Assembly: GCF_000746085.1 (NCBI RefSeq)
Contig: NZ_JQKO01000012.1
Span: 1 to 64,000, forward strand
Reading direction: 5' to 3'
DNA length: 64,000 nucleotides
DNA from: Methylocapsa aurea
GTDB taxonomy: Bacteria; Pseudomonadota; Alphaproteobacteria; Rhizobiales; Beijerinckiaceae
In this document: piece by piece, positions 4,330 through 14,305 of the stretch
Position numbering within the stretch: the first letter of the stretch is position 1
Layout of the letters: each line of letters starts with the position of its first letter
Position numbers and translations under genes: made by a program
Notes under the pieces: model-generated
What the model was told of the DNA's origin: nothing
Databases searched by the model: none
The model's input: the letters and a program-made list of their open reading frames with translations, nothing else

Positions 4330-5382
4330 TCAACTTTGCAAGAGCTCTCTCAAATGAGAGTCGATCTGCGCGTTGTACCCAGGGTCGACGCCGAACAGAG
4401 CCAGGTGCCCCCATTGTGACGACACGCGCTTCAATTTGCTGTTTGGCGTGAATGCTTGTTCGAAGGCGATATCCTTGAGGGGAAAAAAGCCATCCTCCTC
4501 GATTGCGATGACGAAGGTTTTCGCGGTGATGCGGGACAGCGCCTTCGTTAAGTCGCCCGAAGCGATCCGGCTGACATCATTCTCCTGCCATTTCGAAGCC
4601 TGCAGGATCAGGTTGTTGGGATCTTGCTGAATGAAATGATTTTCGACGAAGCCGATCACGAAGTCGTCGACGGACGAAAAGCCGAGCGCTCGCCATCCGG
4701 CGGCATTGAAGAGGTTGTGCGTGAAGCCGGAGGTTGCGAATAATTTTGCATGCCGTCGCAGGCCCCGATGCGCGGCGTGCGGGTCGGCGTACCAACCGCC
4801 ATCCAAAGCCGGATCGCTGGCGATCGCCTCGATGAAGGTTTCGACCAGCAATCGATTATGCGGCGCGGTCTTGGCTGCGCCGGCGATAGGCGCCGCTCGC
4901 TTGACGACATCAGGAAAGCGGACGGCCCATTCATAGGTCTGCTGGGCGCCCATCGACCCGCCGAGAACCAACTCAAGTTTCTCGATGCCGAATTTCTCGG
5001 TGATCAGCCGATGCTGCGCCCGCACGTCGTCGGCGATGCGAACGCGGGGAAACCGCGGACCATTGAAAGGGACGGGTGCGTTGTGTGGCGAACTGGAAAG
5101 GCCATTGCCAATCTGGTTGACGAGAATGATGAAATATTTGTCCGGATCAAGCGCGCGACCCGGACCGACATAGGCGCGCTCCAGACTCTTGCTCGTTCCC
5201 GAATACCAGGTTGGAAATAAAATCGCATTGTCCTTGTTAGGGGCAAGCGCGCCAAAGGTGGCGTAGGCTAGTTTCAAGCCTCTGATGCGGCCGCCGTCCT
5301 CCAGGTCGAAATCGCCGAGATCGTAGGTTTCGAACGGCCCATGGCTTTCCTGCGAATAATAAAGATTAGCCACGATCTGCAT
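4330..5382 (-). CDS. MetX-like alpha/beta hydrolase
   Basis: An alpha/beta-hydrolase of the homoserine O-acetyltransferase (MetX) superfamily, about 350 residues. The nucleophile elbow GGSMGAQQ, a late acidic residue in IEEDGFFP and the C-terminal His in SQWGHLALF complete a triad. MetX enzymes acylate homoserine, but many members of this branch are hydrolases of unknown substrate, and no methionine gene is adjacent. The frame extends to an ATG at 5466; the start at 5382 is preferred because the family homology begins soon after, although its Shine-Dalgarno (AAGG) is weak. Confidence 0.75.
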   Translation of the reverse strand: MQIVANLYYSQESHGPFETYDLGDFDLEDGGRIRGLKLAYATFGALAPNKDNAILFPTWYSGTSKSLERAYVGPGRALDPDKYFIILVNQIGNGLSSSPHNAPVPFNGPRFPRVRIADDVRAQHRLITEKFGIEKLELVLGGSMGAQQTYEWAVRFPDVVKRAAPIAGAAKTAPHNRLLVETFIEAIASDPALDGGWYADPHAAHRGLRRHAKLFATSGFTHNLFNAAGWRALGFSSVDDFVIGFVENHFIQQDPNNLILQASKWQENDVSRIASGDLTKALSRITAKTFVIAIEEDGFFPLKDIAFEQAFTPNSKLKRVSSQWGHLALFGVDPGYNAQIDSHLRELLQS

Positions 5383-5729
5383 CCTTATCGCGGGACGATT
5401 GGCCGCAGCTCCCCTGCATATGGGGAAAAACTCCTGCGGGCCTCGGCTCTGGACATATTTGATCAAAGTCTATAGATTTTAGCAATAAAGAAATTTTGAT
5501 CGGATGCGCGGCGGCTTTTTGCTCCGCCGGGGACGGCGTTGGTTTAGGCCATTGGAGGGTCGGGATCGTCAGCTAGCCTTGGCCAAGGATCCGTTGCGAT
5601 GTGCGTTTGCGCAAGGGTTGGGATACAGGCGTCGACATGGGATCGACGCGCAGCCGCGACCTCCCGTCGAACCTGTGCATAGGAACGCAAGCCGCCACAG
5701 GCGGCATTCTCATGAAAGGAAGAGCTGTA

Positions 5730-6289: not shown

Positions 6290-7711
6290 TCAACGATTGG
6301 CGGCCCGCGCTGACTGCAGGGCGGCTTTTGCGCCGGCGAAATCCTTGACTTCGCCGCCATGGCTTTGCGCCCAGGCCTCGGCGTCGCTCTTCAGGAGGAA
6401 GGCGTTGAGTTCTTCTGGTCCATTGGCGACGAACCATGCTTGGTCGGCGAGAAGTTTAATTCCAGTGTTGCGGTCTTGTGCGTAGACGGCGCCAGTCGAC
6501 TTGCCCGCTTTCTCAAAGCTCAGGAGAGCCTTCAGGGCTGCCTCCGGCGACGCGTAGTGACGGACCAATGGCTCCCCTTTCAGCCAGATCTGAGCGACGC
6601 GCTTCAAATCCGAAATTGGCGCGCCGGTCGTTGCGTCCTTCGCCTTGAGCGGAGACGGAGAATAATTGGCCAGTTGCGCGCTGTAGTCGAGGCCTGACTC
6701 GGCGAAGGCCTGACGGATATATTTATCGACGATGAAGGCATCGAGGTCGAGATCCGTATCCGCGCGCTTCAAGAGTTTCAGCGTTTCGACCGAAGTGGCG
6801 ACGTCCTTGCGATATTCTGGCTTCCACGAAAAATCCCTGGTCTGCAAGCCGAGCGGACCATGGAACAGATAAATGACCGGCGCTTCGATGCCGGAAACTT
6901 TGGCGATGAGCTCGCTGTATTTCTCAGGTTCGGCAGCGACAAGCCGATTGGCCTCGATCGCCGCCTTCAAATAGGCGACCACGATTTCAGGGTATTTTTC
7001 GGCATAATCCGCATCGACCAGAAGGCCATGGAAGGTCGGCGTGTCGGCTTGCGAACCGTCGAAGATCTTGCGCGCGAACCCGCGGGCGGGGAAAAGTTCA
7101 GCGAAGGGAACAAAATCGGCGTGCGCATCGACCTTGTTGCTTTGCAGGGCGGAGCCCGCGACTTCCGGCGCCTGGCTGATTATTTGGACATCTTTTTCCG
7201 GATCCCACCCCTGCGCCTTGACCGCGCGCAAGAGCATTCCGTGGGCGGTCGAGGCGAAAGGCACGGAGATCGTCTTGCCCTTCAAGTCGGCGAGCGACTG
7301 CGCGCTCGACTCCGTCGGCACAACGATCCCGTTCCCGCTGCCTTTGACGCTGCCCGAAAGCACGCTGATGAACAGGCTGCGCTTGCCCGCTTTTTTGAAG
7401 GCGACGCCATTTAGCGAACCCGGGAAATCGGCCATGGCGCCAAAGTCCAGTTTGCCGGCCACCATCTCATTGGTGAGCGGGGCGCCGCTGGTGAAGTTTT
7501 TCCATTGAATGTCGTAGACAGCGTCCTTGTACTTGCCTTTCCGCGGCAGATATTTTTTCAAGAGATCGAGTTCGCGAATGAGGAGCCCGCCCGTCGCGCA
7601 ATTGATGGTCGTGTCCTGCGTGCCGACCGCAACGCGGATCGTCTCGGCTTGCGCCGCGCCGATCATGCTCAAACCGACCGACAAGCTGAAGAGAAGATGA
7701 GGTAGGCGCAT
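6290..7711 (-). CDS. ABC transporter substrate-binding protein, NitT/TauT-like
   Basis: A periplasmic binding protein of the nitrate/sulfonate/taurine type. It has a clear signal peptide ending in GAAQA (about residue 23). At 473 residues it is longer than typical SsuA/TauA (about 320). Features include VAVGTQDTTINCATGG at the mature start, a GKLDFGAMADFP region and LADLKGKTISVP. It is last in a minus-strand series of ATPase, Crp-type regulator, permease and binding protein. The ligand is unknown. The divergent flavoprotein/ferredoxin operon suggests that the imported compound is processed by redox chemistry. Confidence 0.85.
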   Translation of the reverse strand: MRLPHLLFSLSVGLSMIGAAQAETIRVAVGTQDTTINCATGGLLIRELDLLKKYLPRKGKYKDAVYDIQWKNFTSGAPLTNEMVAGKLDFGAMADFPGSLNGVAFKKAGKRSLFISVLSGSVKGSGNGIVVPTESSAQSLADLKGKTISVPFASTAHGMLLRAVKAQGWDPEKDVQIISQAPEVAGSALQSNKVDAHADFVPFAELFPARGFARKIFDGSQADTPTFHGLLVDADYAEKYPEIVVAYLKAAIEANRLVAAEPEKYSELIAKVSGIEAPVIYLFHGPLGLQTRDFSWKPEYRKDVATSVETLKLLKRADTDLDLDAFIVDKYIRQAFAESGLDYSAQLANYSPSPLKAKDATTGAPISDLKRVAQIWLKGEPLVRHYASPEAALKALLSFEKAGKSTGAVYAQDRNTGIKLLADQAWFVANGPEELNAFLLKSDAEAWAQSHGGEVKDFAGAKAALQSARAANR

Positions 7712-7919
7712 GACGATCCTCGTAAGCGGGAAATGACGAAAGACGGATCAAGACCGATCCGCGTGGGTGGCGGCGAACGCGGTGAGACTCCCGCACTCGT
7801 TTATGCATAGGACTCATGTGTGAAAGGCGCGACGCCAATCCATACGTGTAGTGTGAGCTTCGGATGGGTAGAGAGAAGCAATTAATTTCCTGCGTCCGCG
7901 AACCAGAAGATGCTCATCT

Positions 7920-8765
7920 TCACACGCGGCCTTTGACGGCATGCCAAGGCATCGCCCAAGCGCCGATCTTTCGGACTAAGGCGCTGCTCGCCATCCCGAG
8001 AGCGCCGATGATCAACATGCCGACGACGATATCGGCATAGTTCTGCAACGTGTAGGCCTCCCAGGTGTAATAGCCGATGCCGAATTGTCCGGAGATCATC
8101 TCGGCGGTGACGAGGCAGAACCACGCGGTGCCCATGCCGATGGCGAGTCCGGTGACGATCGAGGGCAATGCGCCTGGAACGATGACCTCCCGCAAAATCG
8201 CGCCGCGCCCGGCCCCAAGGCTGCGGGCCGACGCGATAAGCCTGTGGTCGATCCCCTCGACGCCATGAATCGTATTGAGAAGAATCGGAAACACAGCCCC
8301 GGTGAAAGTGATGAATATCATCGAAGCTTCCGCCGAGGGAAACATCAGGATCGCAAGGGGAATCCAGGCCACCGCCGGAATCGGGCGGATCAACTCCAAT
8401 GGCGGCAGCAGGACGTCTTCGGCCCATTTCGTGCGCCCAATGGCAAGGCCAAGGAGAATTCCGAGCCCGCACGCGACGAGATAGCCGCCGAAGACCCGCA
8501 TCAAGCTGCTGCCGAGGTGTGGCAGGAGCTTGGAGGAGTGGGCGAGCGCGAGAGCCGCTTCGAAGACTTCGCTGGGCGGCGGGGTATTGGCGAAGGTGAC
8601 AAGCCCCAAGCTCAGCCGATAGGTCGAAGCCGCTTGCCATAAAAGAACCAGGCCGGCGACGGATGCGAGCCGAAGGAGCAGACGTCGCGGCGGCGGCAAA
8701 CGCGTCCGCATCGACGCGCCGCCTTTTTTCCTTTGGGCCGGAGCATTGGTGGAAATATCGACCAT
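7920..8765 (-). CDS. ABC transporter permease, SsuC/TauC-like
   Basis: Inner-membrane permease, 281 residues with about six hydrophobic segments. It carries the EAA-loop sequence ARSLGAGRGAILREVIVPGA that docks on the ATPase. It belongs to the nitrate/sulfonate/taurine importer class. The ATG at 8765 is preferred to 8810 because a GAAGG lies five bases upstream. A gap of about 150 bases separates it from the upstream regulator gene, so it may have its own promoter. Confidence 0.88.
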   Translation of the reverse strand: MVDISTNAPAQRKKGGASMRTRLPPPRRLLLRLASVAGLVLLWQAASTYRLSLGLVTFANTPPPSEVFEAALALAHSSKLLPHLGSSLMRVFGGYLVACGLGILLGLAIGRTKWAEDVLLPPLELIRPIPAVAWIPLAILMFPSAEASMIFITFTGAVFPILLNTIHGVEGIDHRLIASARSLGAGRGAILREVIVPGALPSIVTGLAIGMGTAWFCLVTAEMISGQFGIGYYTWEAYTLQNYADIVVGMLIIGALGMASSALVRKIGAWAMPWHAVKGRV

Positions 8766-8918
8766 GGCGCCTTCGATGAAACAGAGTGGACGATCCAGGC
8801 TCTTAGGCAAGACCAGGATGCAACCATGTTATCCCTGCGCGGCAAGTGGCTTCGTCAACTAATTGCCTCGACGTCGCGAGACTCCGAGGCCGTCGGCGTT
8901 GCATTTGCCTGCGTGCGT

Positions 8919-9704
8919 CTACAGCGACAAGGGTTGGGGTTCGCTCCCGCGCGGCGAGGCGTCTTCGACGGCGCAACCGGCGAAACGCCGCAGCCTTTGT
9001 TCGTCGAGAATGACGATCTGCGTTCGCCTGATGTCGATCATGCCTTGCGCGACCAAGCGCTCGAGCGTCATCGTCACCCATTGGCGGGTCGCGCCGACCA
9101 TTTTTGCGAGATCTTCATGTGTCAGCGTGCGAGATATAACGACGCCTTCCTTGCAACGCCGTCCGTCCCGGTCCGCCATCAACACGAGCAGTTGCGCCAA
9201 ACGCTCCGACGCCGATCGGGTGCCGAGCATGTGGATCATGGCCGAGTAGCACTTTCCCTTGTGCTCCAAAGCCTCGACCATCGCTATCGCGAGATTGGGC
9301 GTTTCGCTCATCAGACGACGCAATTCGCCGCCCCTGACGTGGAGAACCTGAGTCAGCCGCATCGCCCGGCCAGACCACATATGCTGGCCCCCGCCGAAAA
9401 TCTCCGGGCCGCCGACGAAGTTTCCAGGCGTCCAATAGGCGAGCGTCAATTCGCGTCCCGATGGCCCAGTATAATAGGTGCGCACTTCGCCCGAAAGGAT
9501 GACGAACATTCCTTCGTGCCGCTCGCCTTGTCTGAACACGTCTTGCCCAGCCTGGAATCGCCGCACGGAGGAGACGTCGCGCAGGCGCCGATTTTCCTCA
9601 GCGGTTAGGCTGAGGAGAAGGTTCGGCCCTCCCGCGTCGCGATGGTCGCTCTCGCACAAATAAAGCGAAGGGTTGCGCGCGCCCGCCGGCATCGGGAGGT
9701 TCAT
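8919..9704 (-). CDS. Crp/Fnr-family transcriptional regulator
   Basis: A 261-residue regulator with an N-terminal cyclic-nucleotide-binding-like beta barrel ([19 protein letters not shown]) and a C-terminal winged helix with recognition region [20 protein letters not shown]. It lacks the N-terminal cysteine cluster of oxygen-sensing FNR. The start at 9704 has AAGGAG eight bases upstream, and its ATG overlaps the TGA of the ATPase gene by four bases (ATGA), so the two are translationally coupled. It probably controls the transporter and/or the divergent flavoprotein operon; the effector is unknown. Confidence 0.88.
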
Positions 9705-10519
9705 CGTGCTGCTCCTTGGCCGTCGAATGCGCGTTGGCTCTCCTGCCGGATGAACTTTAGACATTCACGCTTGGCGTCGGCAAAGGCGGGCAGCGCGAAA
9801 ACATCCTGCGGCCGCGGTCGGGGCAGGTCTATGGCTAGGTCGAACAAAACGCGGCCAGGCGCGGCGCTCATGACCACGACGCGATCGGCGAGAAACAAGG
9901 CTTCGTCGACATCATGCGTGACGAAGAGGACGGTTGCGCCGACTTGCGCGCATAGCCGCAACAGATTTTCCTGCATCAGGCAGCGCGTCTGCGCGTCCAG
10001 CGCGCCAAATGGCTCATCCATCAAAAGGACGCTCGGCCGATTGACGAGGGCGCGCGCGATTCCCACGCGCTGCTGCATGCCGCCGGAAAGGGTCGCCGGA
10101 TATTTGTCCGCGCAACCAGCGAGCCCAACCAATTCAATATATTCGCGCGCCTGCCGACGGGCTTCGACCCGCGAGGCGCCCTGCATCCGCGGCCCGAAGG
10201 CGACATTTTCCAGCACGGTCTTCCAGGGGAACAGCGAATATTGCTGAAAAACCATTCCCCGGTCCGCGCCGGGGCCGCGAACCGGGGCGTCATCCACCAG
10301 AATATGGCCAGCCGCGGGCGCAACGAAGCCCGCGACGGCGTTCAGGACGGTCGATTTGCCGCATCCGGATGCGCCGAGGAGGCAAATAAACTCTCCGGGC
10401 GCAATGTCGAGCCGGAATCCTTCAACGGCGATCTGGGCGCCAAACCGCACGCAGAGGTCATGAATGGCCACCCGACCGCGGCTCACTTCATCGGGGCGAC
10501 GCCATGCGCGTGCTGTCAT
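9701..10519 (-). CDS. ABC transporter ATP-binding protein, SsuB/TauB-like
   Basis: Cytoplasmic ATPase of the importer, 272 residues from the chosen start. Walker [10 protein letters not shown] is at 49-57, followed by a Q-loop [11 protein letters not shown], signature LSGGMQQR, Walker [13 protein letters not shown] and the H-loop VTHDVDEA. This is the nitrate/sulfonate/taurine ATPase type. The frame extends to 10642, but the ATG at 10519 has GAAGGA six bases upstream and the extra residues resemble no domain. First gene of the leftward operon, divergent from the flavoprotein gene. Confidence 0.9.
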
Positions 10520-10699
10520 GACATCCTTCGCAAGAAAACGCTCATTTCGCTTGGAGAAGGCCCGCAGGCCCAGCGCGGAACGATAAAGAAATACCTCATT
10601 AGATTTATAGAGTAAAGCGATTGTGCGGGTGGCGAAGAGCAATTACTTGCCAGACAAAGCTCCGACTCGACGCGAAAATGCGGGATGGAGAGTCGAAAG
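10520..10699. promoter_or_regulatory. Divergent promoter region between ABC importer and flavoprotein operons
   Basis: These 180 bases separate the two opposing operons. An A+T-rich island (about 10570-10620, including ATTAGATTTATAGAGTAAAG) is the best candidate for the promoters. No TTGA-N6-TCAA (FNR/Crp-type) site was found here, so any binding site of the neighbouring Crp-type regulator must differ from that consensus. Confidence 0.4.
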
Positions 10700-12433
10700 A
10701 TGCAGATGGCCGAGCCAGACAACCTGTTCGAAACAGATGTGCTTGTCATAGGTGGCGGCACCGCGGGCCCGCTGGCGGCTTACAAGGCAAAAACCGCCAA
10801 TCCGGCGCTGAATGTCCTCCTGCTTGAAAAAGCCAACGTCAAACGCTCCGGCGCCATCGCCATCGGCATGGACGGCTTGAACAATGCCGTCGTTCCGGGC
10901 TTCGCGACGCCGGAGCAATATGTCCGTGAAATCACCATCGCTAATGACGGCATCGTCGATCAGAAGCCCATCCTCGCCTATGCCGAGCGCTCCTTCGACA
11001 TGATCCGGGAACTGGACGATTGGGGCGTCAAGTTCCTCAAGGACGAAAACGGCGATTACGACGTCAAGAAGGTGCATCATCTGGGCGCCTATGTCCTTCC
11101 CATGCCGAACGGCGCCAATGTCAAAAAAATCCTCTACCGCCGGCTGCGGCAAGCCCAGACGCTTATCTCCAACCGCTTCATGGCGACGCGTCTTCTGAGA
11201 GGCGCGGACGGACGGATCGCTGGCGCGATCGCCGTCAACAGCCGCACGGCGGAGATCCTTGTCATCCGCGCCAAGGCGGTCATTCTCGCCATGGGGGCGG
11301 CGGGCCGATTGGGCTTGCCTGCATCGGGATATCTTTGGGGCGGCTACGAGAATCCGACGAATTGCGGCGATGGCTACGCCATGGCCTATCATGCCGGCGC
11401 CGAACTCTCGAACCTTGAATGCTATCAGATCAACCCGCTGATCAAGGACTATAACGGTCCGGCTTGCGCTTATGTCGGCGGCCCGTTCGGAGCCTATACG
11501 GCCAACAGCGAGGGCGCGCGCTTCATCGAATGCGATTATTGGTCCGGCCAGATGATGATGGAATTCTATCGGGAGCTCCACGGCGGCAAAGGGCCCGTCT
11601 TCCTCAAGTTCAATCATCTCGCCTCGGAAACCGTCGCCGAGATCGAGAACATCCTGCATCATGTCGAACGGCCGTCGCGTGGCCTCTTCCATGCCGGCCG
11701 CGGCGCTGACTACCGCCGAGACATGGTCGAAATGCATATTTCGGAGATCGGCTTTTGCGCCGGCCACAGCGCCTCCGGCGTCTTTGTCGACGAACATGCG
11801 CGCACCACCGTCGAGGGCCTTTACGCAGCTGGCGATATGGCGAGCGTCCCTCATAATTACATGCTCGGCGCCTTTGTGAACGGCGCGATCGCAGGGGAGG
11901 ACGCAGCCAGATTCGCGGCCTCCGCGCCGCTCGCCGAATATGACGCCGGCCAGGTCGAGGCCGAGAGGCTGCGCGTGCGCGCTCCGCTGAGCAATGACGA
12001 TGGGCTGCCGCCCAACCAGGTCGAATACAAGATCCGGCGGTTCGTGAACGACTACCTGCAGCCGCCGAAAGTGACGCGAAAATATGAAATCGCGCAACAG
12101 CGCTTTGCGGAAATTCGGGCCGATCTGCCAAGAATGATGGCGCGCGATCCGCACGAATTAATGCGCGCGCTCGAGGTTTATTCAATCCTCGACTGCGCCG
12201 ACATGGCGGCCGCCGCATCGCTCTTTCGCACCGAAAGCCGCTGGGGCCTCTATCACTATCGGATGGATTATCCCGAGCCGAACGATGCCGACTGGTTTTG
12301 TCACCTGCAGCTCTTCAAGGACGAGAACAGCCGGATGGCCTGCCGCAAGCGCCCGATCGAACCTTACATCGTGCCGATCGATGCGACGGAGAAGGACGCC
12401 TATCATCGCCTCCGCATTCCCGCGCACGCCTGA
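10700..12433 (+). CDS. AprA/fumarate-reductase-like FAD flavoprotein
   Basis: A 577-residue flavoprotein of the succinate dehydrogenase/fumarate reductase/APS reductase alpha superfamily. The FAD-binding motif VLVIGGGTAGPLAA lies near the N-terminus, and a second FAD segment GLYAAGDMASVPHNYMLGAF lies in the middle. The C-terminal third (ESRWGLYHYRMDYP, DADWF) resembles AprA more than SdhA, but at 577 residues it is shorter than dissimilatory AprA. The partner is a small ferredoxin rather than canonical AprB. Start 10700 is chosen because GGAGAG is seven bases upstream; 10685 is also open. It is first in an operon with ferredoxin and HEAT genes. The reaction is unknown. Confidence 0.85.
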   Translation: MQMAEPDNLFETDVLVIGGGTAGPLAAYKAKTANPALNVLLLEKANVKRSGAIAIGMDGLNNAVVPGFATPEQYVREITIANDGIVDQKPILAYAERSFDMIRELDDWGVKFLKDENGDYDVKKVHHLGAYVLPMPNGANVKKILYRRLRQAQTLISNRFMATRLLRGADGRIAGAIAVNSRTAEILVIRAKAVILAMGAAGRLGLPASGYLWGGYENPTNCGDGYAMAYHAGAELSNLECYQINPLIKDYNGPACAYVGGPFGAYTANSEGARFIECDYWSGQMMMEFYRELHGGKGPVFLKFNHLASETVAEIENILHHVERPSRGLFHAGRGADYRRDMVEMHISEIGFCAGHSASGVFVDEHARTTVEGLYAAGDMASVPHNYMLGAFVNGAIAGEDAARFAASAPLAEYDAGQVEAERLRVRAPLSNDDGLPPNQVEYKIRRFVNDYLQPPKVTRKYEIAQQRFAEIRADLPRMMARDPHELMRALEVYSILDCADMAAAASLFRTESRWGLYHYRMDYPEPNDADWFCHLQLFKDENSRMACRKRPIEPYIVPIDATEKDAYHRLRIPAHA

Positions 12434-12442
12434 GGTCAATCA

Positions 12443-12676
12443 ATGCCGATAGCAAACAATCCATCTGAAATGCCGGTCAAAATCGACGCGGAAAAATGCA
12501 TCGCGGACAAAGGCTGCACCGTCTGCATCGATGTCTGTCCGCTCGATGTCTTGCGGATAAATCCGGCGAATGGCAAGGCGCATATGCGTTATGACGAATG
12601 CTGGTATTGCCTGCCATGCGCCATCGATTGTCCGACCAAAGCGGTCACTGTCGCCATCCCCTATCTGTTGCGCTGA
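12443..12676 (+). CDS. 2[4Fe-4S] ferredoxin, AprB-like
   Basis: A 77-residue ferredoxin with two iron-sulfur binding motifs: an unusual C-x5-C-x2-C-x3-CP (CIADKGCTVCIDVCP) and a standard C-x2-C-x2-C-x3-CP (CWYCLPCAIDCP). The first spacing and the CWYC form resemble the core of AprB, without AprB's C-terminal tail. It starts nine bases after the flavoprotein gene and its stop overlaps the HEAT-protein ATG, so it is very likely the electron partner of the flavoprotein. Confidence 0.9.
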   Translation: MPIANNPSEMPVKIDAEKCIADKGCTVCIDVCPLDVLRINPANGKAHMRYDECWYCLPCAIDCPTKAVTVAIPYLLR

Positions 12677-13650
12677 TGATGAAACAGTCCGGTTTCTTCG
12701 ATGAGCCGCAGGTCGACTTCGTCGATCTTGAGCGACGGCTGGCGAGCTTTGACGCCGCTGAGCGCAGCGTCGCGGCGAGGGAGGTCGCCGAGACCCCCGG
12801 ACCCGAGGCCGAAAGGCTGCTCATCCACGCCATCGCCGATTCTGACGCCGCCGTTCGCAGGGAGGCGGCGCTCGGTCTGGAGCAGTTCGACGGATTGGCG
12901 CCGGCTGAAGCGCTCGCGCAGGCCCTGCTGGACGAGAACGCGGCGGTGGCCGAGGCCGCCGCCGCAAGTCTCGCGGAATTGAAATCTCCTGAAGCCGCGC
13001 CGCCACTCCTTGCTCTTATCAAGCATCCCCGGGCCGAAGTGCGTATTGCGGTCTGCCGCGGTCTGCGCAATCTGCGCTTAGAAGCGGCTTTCCAGCCAGG
13101 GCTCGAAGCGTTGGGCGATGCCGATGCGCGCGTTCGGCGCGAAGCAGTTGGCATTCTCGCTTATCTCAAGGCCACGAAAGCGCTCCCCGCTCTCGTGAAA
13201 GCTGCGTCCGATGAAAATGTCGAGGTGCGGCGGGCGGCGATCTCGGCGCTCGCCTTCGCGCCTGCCGAGGCGTCGCTCGGCTCGGTTCTCACCTGCCTTT
13301 CGGACCCCCATTGGTTGGTGCGCGAGGCGGCCGTCGTGCTCGCCGGGAGGGTCAAGGCGGAGGGCGCCATCGCCGGACTGATCAATAGCCTCTCCGACGA
13401 GTTCTGGCAGGTTCGAGGCAAGGCTGCTCTCGCGCTTGGCACACTCAAAGCTGTCGCGGCGATCCCGGCGCTCGGCAATCTCATTGGCTTTCCGATCAGC
13501 AATCTTCGCAAGGATGTCGCGGCGGCCCTCGGCGACATCGGTCATCCGGATGCCTTGCCTTTTCTTGAGACGGCAGCTGGGGACATCGATCCCGATGTTC
13601 GGAAAATCGCCCGCCGCTCCATTCAACTCGTTGAGTCCACTCGGAGCTGA
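12676..13650 (+). CDS. HEAT-repeat protein (EZ-HEAT/PBS-lyase type)
   Basis: A 324-residue all-helical protein made of about nine repeats of roughly 31 residues with the consensus (S/A)D-x-x-x-x-VRREA-x-x-AL, for example DSDAAVRREAALGL, DADARVRREAVGIL and DENVEVRRAAISAL. Such repeats occur in scaffold proteins and in phycobilin lyase-type maturation factors. The ATG overlaps the ferredoxin stop (ATGA at 12676), giving strict co-translation. It is inferred to be a scaffold or cofactor-maturation helper of the flavoprotein/ferredoxin pair. No catalytic motif is visible. Confidence 0.88.
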   Translation: MMKQSGFFDEPQVDFVDLERRLASFDAAERSVAAREVAETPGPEAERLLIHAIADSDAAVRREAALGLEQFDGLAPAEALAQALLDENAAVAEAAAASLAELKSPEAAPPLLALIKHPRAEVRIAVCRGLRNLRLEAAFQPGLEALGDADARVRREAVGILAYLKATKALPALVKAASDENVEVRRAAISALAFAPAEASLGSVLTCLSDPHWLVREAAVVLAGRVKAEGAIAGLINSLSDEFWQVRGKAALALGTLKAVAAIPALGNLIGFPISNLRKDVAAALGDIGHPDALPFLETAAGDIDPDVRKIARRSIQLVESTRS

Positions 13651-13828: not shown

Positions 13829-14305
13829 TTATCCAGCGTGGCGGACGTGGATATGCGGATGCCGCTTCGCTTGATCCTTGCCGTGGGCGTGGGTTTCCTG
13901 CTTGACTTCGACCGGGACAGCGACGAGCCGGCCATGCCGGACGCCCCGCTCGGCGATGACATGTTCGGCGAAATGATGCACTTCCTGCGTCGCTCCGCGC
14001 AGCAGCGCAACCTCCATGCAGCTGGCGTGGTCGAGATGAACCTGCATGGCGGCGACCGACAGATCGTGATGGTGGTGATGCGCGTCGGCGAGACGCTTGG
14101 CGAGTTCGCGCACGGTGTGGTCATAGACATAGACCAGCGCGGCGACGCAATCGCCGCTGTCGCTTGTCTCAACCCGCGCCTGCTGCATGCCGGCGCGGGC
14201 GAGATCGCGAATGGCCTCCGACCGGTTCTGATAACCGCGTCCCTTCATGAAGCGGTCCAGTTCCGCGATGAGTTCATCGTCGAGAGTGATGGTGACCCGC
14301 TGCAT
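13829..14305 (-). CDS. nikR: Nickel-responsive regulator NikR with altered nickel site
   Basis: NikR family repressor, 158 residues. An N-terminal ribbon-helix-helix (MQRVTITLDDELIAELD, RSEAIRDLAR) is followed by a C-terminal ACT-like nickel domain. Aligning with E. coli NikR ligands H76, H87, H89 and C95 gives H77, Q88, H90 and C96. The H87 equivalent is therefore glutamine (MQVHLDHASC), while the His-rich HHHHHD and the C-terminal RGVRHG are kept. The tail is about 20 residues longer than in E. coli and His-rich (HAHGKDQAKRHPHIHVRH). Nickel regulation fits the hypB gene at the window start, though no nickel transporter is adjacent. Confidence 0.92.
   Translation of the reverse strand: MQRVTITLDDELIAELDRFMKGRGYQNRSEAIRDLARAGMQQARVETSDSGDCVAALVYVYDHTVRELAKRLADAHHHHHDLSVAAMQVHLDHASCMEVALLRGATQEVHHFAEHVIAERGVRHGRLVAVPVEVKQETHAHGKDQAKRHPHIHVRHAG

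What the first reader, a model, noticed from the sequence alone, without database searches (positions are those of the whole stretch)
6290..13650. Uncharacterised ABC importer - AprA-like flavoprotein - ferredoxin - HEAT protein system
Two divergent operons seem to form one system. One encodes a NitT/TauT-type importer with a Crp-type regulator. The other encodes an AprA/fumarate-reductase-like flavoprotein, an AprB-like 2[4Fe-4S] ferredoxin and a HEAT-repeat protein with overlapping genes. The C-terminal third of the flavoprotein resembles APS reductase alpha, but both subunits are shorter than dissimilatory AprAB, and no sat, qmo or dsr genes are near. It may process an imported organosulfur or nitrogen compound by an unrecognised redox reaction.
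Basis: partly seen in the sequence, partly recalled or inferred. Interest (0 to 1): 0.72.

Follow-up and report, generated by a model that had tools for sequence, protein, structure and literature searches.

The report
APS-reductase-like organosulfur scavenging system
A widespread but uncharacterised bacterial gene set pairs an importer for sulfur-containing organic molecules with a relative of the sulfur enzyme APS reductase, and it probably frees the sulfur for growth by a reaction that still has to be measured.

Summary
Of 297 Hyphomicrobiales genomes, 26 have the flavoprotein, 23 the binding protein and 22 both, close together in 21 of the 22. The flavoprotein belongs to NF006131/PRK08275, a family for which I found no tested function. 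Its clade is sister to AprA (38 of 38 tips, support 0.98). It keeps AprA's active-site Asn and His, but not the Trp and Arg that bind APS.

The cargo is very likely organosulfur. The binding protein is TauA/SsuA-like with a NosL-like tail. The three full-length flavoprotein-free importers I opened sit beside an arylsulfatase and a formylglycine-generating enzyme, nested at two places among flavoprotein-linked importers. Four of nine importer-free copies carry an ssuD-like gene. Ferredoxin or ferredoxin-NADP reductase genes (47 of 80 loci) and YeiH exporters (24 of 80) are neighbours; neither occurs in 40 control stretches.

Best reading: an imported sulfate ester (or sulfonate) is cleaved reductively by ferredoxin and FAD, releasing sulfite. 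Organosulfur role about 0.8 likely; the reaction about 0.4. It is not AprAB, Frd/Sdh or AsfAB.

The parts
6290..7711 (-). Periplasmic substrate-binding protein, 473 aa: TauA/SsuA-like domain plus a NosL-like C-terminal region (about residues 372-459)
   Evidence: NMT1_2 48.9 bits; profile of 24 relatives hits TauA 6ssy at 4.6e-26 and SsuA 2x26 at 4e-22, NosL 7og7 at 2.8e-4; NosL PF05573 21.3 bits for the tail alone, below its cut-off of 24
7920..8810 (-). ABC permease, NitT/TauT type, 296 aa
   Evidence: BPD_transp_1 77.7 bits; nearest NCBIfam models SaoP, NtrB, SsuC, TauC, all below cut-off
8919..9764 (-). Crp/Fnr-family regulator, 281 aa
   Evidence: cNMP_binding 67.4 and HTH_Crp_2 59.9 bits; a relative near the flavoprotein in 45 of 80 loci
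9701..10642 (-). ABC ATPase, 313 aa as called; true start probably further in
   Evidence: ABC_tran 115 bits; overlaps the regulator frame by 64 bases
10685..12433 (+). FAD flavoprotein, 582 aa, family NF006131/PRK08275, sister clade of AprA
   Evidence: 1048.4 bits, cut-off 587; tree
12443..12676 (+). 2[4Fe-4S] ferredoxin, 77 aa, like the N-terminal half of AprB
   Evidence: Fer4_7 35.2 bits; aprB model positions 1-64 of 132; present in 78 of 80 loci
12676..13650 (+). HEAT-repeat protein, 324 aa; the open frame itself begins at 12598
   Evidence: HEAT_2 159.3 bits; matches positions 655-895 of PRK13800, a flavoprotein-HEAT fusion; present in 79 of 80 loci

Best explanation
An organosulfur scavenging system. 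Step 1 (strong support from context): a NitT/TauT-type importer with a TauA/SsuA-like binding protein brings a small organic sulfur compound into the cell, most likely a sulfate ester, possibly a sulfonate. Step 2 (inferred): the AprA-related flavoprotein, fed by its own 2[4Fe-4S] ferredoxin and often by FdxA or ferredoxin-NADP reductase, attacks the sulfur with reduced FAD, as APS reductase does when it reduces APS, and splits R-O-SO3 into R-OH and sulfite. Step 3 (inferred): sulfite goes to a sulfite reductase, and any excess leaves through YeiH or TSUP exporters where these are present. The HEAT protein is taken as a physical partner of the flavoprotein because the two are one gene in actinobacteria; DUF971 or Mrp/NBP35 next door would fit iron-sulfur maturation (my reading, untested). 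A Crp- or GntR-type regulator would switch it.
For: One system: 22 of 297 genomes with both, 21 of those 22 with the genes at most 7.2 kb apart; 71 of 80 loci against 0 of 40 controls. Cargo: SBP closest to TauA and SsuA among solved proteins. When the flavoprotein is missing, the importer sits with an arylsulfatase and a formylglycine-generating enzyme in all three full-length cases opened; the sulfatases are 70-86% identical with a CTPTR motif, and their SBPs nest inside flavoprotein-linked SBPs at two places (support 0.906 and 1.0). When the importer is missing, 4 of 9 loci carry an ssuD-like gene. SsuD is over-represented in flavoprotein genomes: 17 of 26 against 39 of 271 (p 4e-8); by genus 6 of 12 against 18 of 111 (p 0.012). 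Chemistry: sister clade of AprA (0.984), with Asn66, His361 and His390 shared by 26 of 26 and 12 of 12. Electrons: FdxA or ferredoxin-NADP reductase near in 47 of 80 loci, 0 of 40 controls for each. Product: YeiH near in 24 of 80, 0 of 40 controls; YeiH and TauE/SafE downstream in three cyanobacterial plasmids, TauE upstream in Aquabacterium. HEAT fused to the flavoprotein in Tsukamurella.
Against: No activity, mutant or expression result exists here. Sulfur oxidisers (Thiobacillus, Halothiobacillus, Sulfuriferula, Acidithiobacillus caldus) carry it and should not need scavenged sulfur. The sulfate-ester step rests on three loci, and SBP subtypes are only 31-48% identical to the window SBP in the comparison, so ligands may differ. 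The window's own genome has no YeiH and does have SsuD. TauE/SafE is near in only 1 of 80 loci, and none was within 10 kb in 21 genomes in a cut list. Exporter specificities are poorly known. By genus the YeiH link is 2 lineages in 21 genomes (p 0.004). SCO1, PCuAC and cytochrome c in some marine clusters are not explained. In AprA the lost Trp and Arg bind the substrate, so mechanism need not carry over.
Confidence: 0.42

Rival explanations
1. The flavoprotein-ferredoxin pair is only an electron chain for an SsuD-like oxygenase that cleaves sulfonates. This is how AsfA/AsfB of Pseudomonas putida S-313 are read in a review.
For: PMC4267179 (passages) describes asfRABC as binding protein, ABC transporter, reductase/ferredoxin electron transport and LysR regulator that complement ssu. 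SsuD co-occurs with the flavoprotein, lies next to it in 5 of 80 loci, and is in the window's genome.
Against: 9 of 26 flavoprotein genomes in the order have no SsuD over the cut-off, though two of the nine are incomplete. No oxygenase is in the window operons. The flavoprotein is AprA-like with conserved catalytic-type residues and is not close to the AsfA candidate (26% identity; residues differ).
Confidence: 0.18
2. The flavoprotein itself cleaves the C-S bond of an imported sulfonate (reductive desulfonation), rather than a sulfate ester.
For: TauA/SsuA-like binding protein; ssuD-like genes beside the importer-free copies; sulfite as expected product, as for the exporter neighbours.
Against: Three importer copies are paired with a sulfatase, which acts on sulfate esters, not sulfonates. 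Reductive C-S cleavage needs a poor leaving group, unlike APS.
Confidence: 0.17
3. It is a ferredoxin-dependent assimilatory APS or PAPS reductase.
For: Best solved relative is a PAPS reductase; AprA is the sister clade.
Against: The Arg and Trp that bind APS are Leu252 and Tyr221 in 26 of 26 members, while 12 of 12 AprA keep Arg and Trp, and 8a8o keeps them too (alignment). The importer is not a sulfate importer by family. No sat seen nearby.
Confidence: 0.04
4. It is a dehydrogenase or reductase of an imported carboxylate, like succinate dehydrogenase, fumarate reductase or aspartate oxidase.
For: Same superfamily; the family's automatic name.
Against: 140 bits to the Sdh/Frd model against a cut-off of 567. 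The two Arg of E. coli SdhA (286, 399; roles recalled, positions counted on the alignment) fall in insertions without a counterpart. Sulfur-type neighbours.
Confidence: 0.07
5. The system serves copper or copper-enzyme assembly, as the NosL-like tail might suggest.
For: NosL match; SCO1-SenC, PCuAC and cytochrome c in L060 and similar frames by eye in L004 and L170.
Against: In the tail of 24 SBPs no Cys or Met column is shared by 6 or more; one His column has 6 of 24. The copper-type neighbours were seen in one group of loci only.
Confidence: 0.04

Closest known systems
Dissimilatory APS reductase AprAB and the PAPS reductase of Methanothermococcus thermolithotrophicus (8a8o)
   Same: FAD_binding_2 flavoprotein with a 2[4Fe-4S] partner; full-length alignment; sister clade to AprA; active-site Asn and His kept
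   Different: 168 bits to aprA against a cut-off of 642; APS-binding Trp and Arg replaced in 26 of 26; ferredoxin without the AprB tail; tied to an importer and a HEAT protein
asfRABC aryl-sulfonate desulfurisation genes (Pseudomonas putida S-313; AsfAB candidate in Cupriavidus metallidurans)
   Same: Reductase + ferredoxin + binding protein + ABC transporter, in sulfur scavenging (PMC4267179, passages); AsfA-like genes seen beside SsuA-type importers, LLM oxygenases and a sulfate exporter (not all in each)
   Different: 26% identity to the candidate; separate clade; no HEAT protein or NosL-like tail seen there; no real AsfA sequence was available to me
ssu and tau sulfonate systems
   Same: Importer family; binding protein nearest TauA/SsuA; shared neighbourhoods in L075 and L077
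   Different: SBP below the SsuA_fam cut-off (120.6 of 163.5); no oxygenase in the window operons
PRK13800 / NF010374 flavoprotein-HEAT fusion of actinobacteria
   Same: Same two parts; same operon partners in Tsukamurella
   Different: One gene there, two here; window flavoprotein 838 bits against a cut-off of 1196

Membership tests
NF006131 / PRK08275 flavoprotein | Score over the curated cut-off of 587 bits | tested here: met
   1048.4 bits
AprA (TIGR02061) | Score over the curated cut-off of 641.75 bits | tested here: not met
   168.2 bits
AprA (TIGR02061) | Active-site Trp and Arg that bind APS/sulfite (roles recalled) | tested here: not met
   Tyr221 and Leu252 in 26 of 26; Trp and Arg in 12 of 12 AprA
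AprA (TIGR02061) | Active-site Asn and His | tested here: met
   Asn66 and His361 in 26 of 26; Asn and His in 12 of 12 AprA
AprB (TIGR02060) | Score over 135.65 bits and full length | tested here: not met
   30 bits, positions 1-64 of 132
Sdh/Frd flavoprotein (TIGR01812) | Score over 567.3 bits; catalytic Arg residues | tested here: not met
   139.5 bits; both SdhA Arg fall in insertions (alignment)
AsfA | Close kin of AsfA | tested here: inconclusive
   No proven AsfA sequence at hand; only 26% identical to the candidate in C. metallidurans, a separate clade
Organosulfur scavenging system | Growth on the compound as sole sulfur source; control by sulfur supply | not testable with these tools
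   Needs mutants and expression data
SsuA family (TIGR01728) | Score over 163.5 bits | tested here: not met
   120.6 bits
NosL (PF05573) | Score over 24 bits | tested here: not met
   21.3 bits for the tail alone; 18.3 in the whole protein; 11 of 24 relatives match at E<=0.01, best 1.3e-6
NosL (PF05573) | Conserved Cu(I) ligands of Cys/Met/His type (recalled) | tested here: not met
   No Cys or Met column with 6 or more of 24; one His column with 6

The most novel reading that the evidence does not exclude
The pair is a ferredoxin-dependent organosulfate reductase: an APS-reductase relative that takes an organic sulfate ester in place of APS and splits off sulfite reductively, without ATP activation and without oxygen. 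A hydrolytic sulfatase and this reductase would then be interchangeable enzymes behind one importer lineage. I recall no enzyme described with this activity, and none of my paper searches was aimed at it.
Probability: 0.36. Interest if true: 0.82.

Novelty: new variant of a known kind. Interest (0 to 1): 0.62.

Why it matters
Sulfate esters and sulfonates are called the major forms of organic sulfur in soil (abstract passage of PMC4267179). A dedicated flavoenzyme-importer set for such compounds occurs in Proteobacteria, cyanobacteria and actinobacteria under the name of a fumarate reductase/succinate dehydrogenase subunit; one capped scan confirmed 556 candidate stretches. If the reading is right, these names mislead, a route from organic sulfur to sulfite exists that spares the ATP of sulfate activation, and sulfur scavenging without oxygen gets a gene to test. 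It also shows how an AprA-type active site may change its substrate.

Tried and rejected
Considered and put aside: nitrogen cargo; AprAB proper; Sdh/Frd; copper or N2O biology; AsfA itself. AsfA was my strongest early lead, from PMC2864759 (passages). It weakened when the C. metallidurans megaplasmid proved to hold no NF006131 member over the cut-off. In the stretches that I read (722-936 kb) the flavoprotein with a small 2[4Fe-4S] ferredoxin is at 928 kb and is 26% identical; a second flavoprotein at 895 kb has a larger iron-sulfur partner. The record is unannotated, so Rmet_4334/5 could not be tied to coordinates, and 722-890 kb gave no other such pair. The other flavoprotein hits of that record were not checked for ferredoxins, except the one near 794 kb, whose surroundings I read.

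Paper searches found no study of this family. One search (the family names) found one paper, on mycorrhizal fungi (PMC8401276), seen in the listing only. Searches gave the asf literature. One search gave Bradyrhizobium and other sulfur papers, of which I looked into PMC2864759 (passages) and PMC3511301 (a find without a match). PMC8557817 (passages) had nothing on the family; PMC3506598 and PMC7494797 (passages) were not useful. 'No function found' holds only for these searches of this library.

Limits of the counts. One search kept the best 80 of 556 confirmed candidates, so closer relatives are favoured and rarer contexts may be missing; several loci are cut by contig ends. The bit thresholds are mine. 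Its 40 controls are 20 kb stretches at round coordinates that I picked in twelve flavoprotein genomes, not in the genomes of the 80 loci. Related genomes are not independent; genus-level figures are given where I made them. The plasmid searches used different E limits (flavoprotein 1e-60, SBP 1e-40). The trees held AprA rows read from the wrong strand and are replaced; one search stopped on the same fault. An in-frame TGA reported for the G012 SBP is probably the gene's own stop at the end of the match, since one search shows an open frame there.

No structure model was obtained and no fold search was run.


Full report
What is there. The region holds two divergent operons. On the minus strand, in transcription order: ABC ATPase (10642-9701), Crp/Fnr-type regulator (9764-8919), permease (8810-7920), binding protein (7711-6290). 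On the plus strand: flavoprotein (10685-12433), ferredoxin (12443-12676), HEAT protein (12676-13650).

The flavoprotein. It scores 1048 bits against NF006131/PRK08275 (cut-off 587), a family with the automatic name of a fumarate reductase/succinate dehydrogenase subunit. Next come PRK13800 (838), PRK06854 (295), aprA (168, cut-off 642) and sdhA/frdA (140). The best solved relative is the PAPS reductase alpha subunit of Methanothermococcus thermolithotrophicus, aligned over nearly the full length (PMC10322725, passages). In a FastTree phylogeny of 26 family members, 12 AprA, 5 AsfA-like, one SdhA and one NadB-like sequence (the last two labels are mine), rooted on SdhA, the family is one clade (26 of 26, support 0.963). 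Family plus AprA is one clade (38 of 38, 0.984), with the AsfA-like proteins outside. Asn66, His361 and His390 are invariant in the family and shared by 12 of 12 AprA. The AprA Trp and Arg that bind APS or sulfite are Tyr221 and Leu252 in 26 of 26; Glu222, Cys246 and Cys261 are also invariant here and different in AprA. The roles and the AprA number of the His are recalled; Trp234 and Arg265 could be counted on the printed alignment. Cyanobacterial and actinobacterial members are still 56-62% identical to the window protein. So it is an APS-reductase relative with a changed and then strongly kept pocket.

The partners. In 80 loci from genome contigs the ferredoxin is present in 78, HEAT in 79, the SBP in 71, the permease in 68, the ATPase in 70; none of these relatives occurs in 40 control stretches of 20 kb at my thresholds. 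In the order of the window's genome, 26 of 297 genomes have the flavoprotein, 23 the SBP, 22 both (p 3e-28). In 21 of the 22 the genes are at most 7.2 kb apart; G028 has them far apart. G587 has the SBP only. G495, G545, G601 and G604 have the flavoprotein only, and in G495 and G601 it lies within 1 kb of a contig end. In Tsukamurella flavoprotein and HEAT are one 893 aa gene in one operon with ferredoxin, SBP, permease and ATPase, which argues for a physical complex. DUF971 lies near in 62 of 80 loci; Mrp/NBP35 follows HEAT in four cyanobacterial clusters. FdxA or ferredoxin-NADP reductase lies near in 47 of 80, which points to a reduction driven by low-potential electrons.

The cargo. The SBP's main domain is closest to TauA (E 4.6e-26) and SsuA (4e-22) among solved proteins. 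Its tail matches NosL weakly (21.3 bits, cut-off 24; 11 of 24 relatives at E<=0.01) and shows no shared Cys or Met column. I then asked what the importer does where the flavoprotein is absent. In the order sample the single such genome, G587, has SBP-permease-ATPase followed by an arylsulfatase, a formylglycine-generating enzyme and SulP. Among plasmids 43 records hold the SBP at 1e-40, and 4 of these are not among the 51 records of the flavoprotein search at 1e-60. Paraburkholderia largidicola and Gordonia amicalis have an arylsulfatase and a formylglycine-generating enzyme. The other two are Acidithiobacillus caldus plasmids with a match over SBP residues 2-285 only; I opened one and found a transposase beside it. 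The three sulfatases are 70-86% identical, have CTPTR and show no obvious signal peptide by eye. Their SBPs nest inside the flavoprotein-linked SBPs at two places: beside the thiobacilli-type clade (support 0.906) and with Tsukamurella (1.0) (79 SBPs). So sulfatase and flavoprotein have apparently replaced each other at least twice behind one importer lineage. Conversely, 4 of the 9 loci that lack the SBP hold an ssuD-like gene, and L075 and L077 (Methylococcales) read by eye as ssu-type clusters. SsuD is also over-represented in flavoprotein genomes: 17 of 26 against 39 of 271, and by genus 6 of 12 against 18 of 111. Together this makes an organosulfur cargo very likely and favours a sulfate ester.

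The product. YeiH, annotated as a putative sulfate exporter, lies near in 24 of 80 loci in several genera and in 0 of 40 controls. By position, 6 of 21 genomes have YeiH within 10 kb of the flavoprotein against 0.09 expected; counted by genus it is 2 (p 0.004). Three cyanobacterial plasmids have YeiH-type and TauE/SafE genes downstream, and Aquabacterium has TauE upstream. Two of the three sulfatase versions have SulP instead. Sulfite release in one case and sulfate release in the other would fit, but exporter specificity is poorly known. Against it: the window's own genome has no YeiH; TauE is near in 1 of 80 loci and in none of 21 genomes in a cut list. The genome has four sulfite/nitrite reductase domain matches in two frames and an SsuD.

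How it most likely works. Import of a sulfate ester (or sulfonate); reduction of FAD through the 2[4Fe-4S] ferredoxin; attack of reduced flavin on the sulfur; release of the alcohol and sulfite, as APS reductase does with AMP as leaving group. Shown: the genes, their linkage, the phylogeny, the residue pattern. Inferred: the cargo class (strong), electron flow (moderate), the reaction (weak to moderate).

Comparison with the known. The nearest published function is asf. Reviews and papers describe asfRABC as binding protein, ABC transporter, reductase/ferredoxin and LysR regulator needed, with ssu, for aromatic sulfonates (PMC4267179, passages; PMC9694294, passages). C. metallidurans is said to have AsfA/AsfB (PMC2864759, passages). 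Its megaplasmid has no NF006131 member over the cut-off but has a flavoprotein-ferredoxin pair beside what read by eye as importer ATPase and permease genes. Relatives of that pair lie beside SsuA-type importers, LLM monooxygenases, SsuD, a sulfatase or a sulfate exporter in the four regions opened, not all in each. I take the pair as AsfAB, unproven. It is a second, more distant flavoprotein-ferredoxin family in the same trade; the Nostoc plasmid carries both.

Distribution. The family is accessory: 21 of 398 genomes drawn across the phylum, and 51 plasmid records.

What does not fit. Sulfur oxidisers carry it. A marine alphaproteobacterial version adds SCO1, PCuAC, a thioredoxin-type protein and cytochrome c (L060; L004 and L170 by eye). 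No structure model could be made.

Noticed in passing
window 6293-6871 (-), SBP tail: A NosL-like C-terminal region on a TauA/SsuA-type binding protein, without shared Cys or Met ligands; an apparently unreported fusion whose use is unclear.
   Followed up: partly
L060:13774-20507; L004:13766-20360; L170:12119-18917: In marine-type alphaproteobacteria the same cluster gains a TlpA-type thioredoxin, SCO1/SenC, copper chaperone PCuAC, a cytochrome c and an extra membrane protein without a Pfam match (L060 by Pfam; the others by eye).
   Followed up: partly
L157:9959-17163; L158:1689-13451; L160:3575-10970: The importer paired with arylsulfatase and formylglycine-generating enzyme, with SulP in two of three: possibly a sulfate-ester scavenging island.
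   Followed up: yes
L133:39882-41863; L137, L138, L139, L140: A second flavoprotein-ferredoxin family in sulfur-scavenging contexts (AsfAB candidates), in 56 plasmid records at 1e-80.
   Followed up: partly
L085:10574-14035; L041:6995-10513: A very long FAD-dependent oxidoreductase (1153-1172 aa, only a Pyr_redox_2 match) downstream of the flavoprotein in Acidithiobacillus caldus and sulfur-oxidiser-type loci.
   Followed up: no
window 4330-5466 (-): MetX-like alpha/beta hydrolase of subfamily PRK07581 (484 bits, cut-off 332) next to the SBP gene; link to the system unknown.
   Followed up: no
window 13829-14305 (-): Nickel-responsive regulator NikR just downstream of the HEAT gene on the other strand.
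   Followed up: no
L086:5871-27926 and L138: Nostoc edaphicum plasmid pNe_5 looks like a sulfur island: this system, AsfAB-like genes, SsuD, sulfonate binding proteins, MetX, O-acetylhomoserine sulfhydrylase and YeeE/YedE.
   Followed up: partly
L009:13072-14577: An RnfC-like protein by eye, with a TSUP-type transporter nearby, downstream of the flavoprotein genes in a gammaproteobacterial MAG; not scanned.
   Followed up: no
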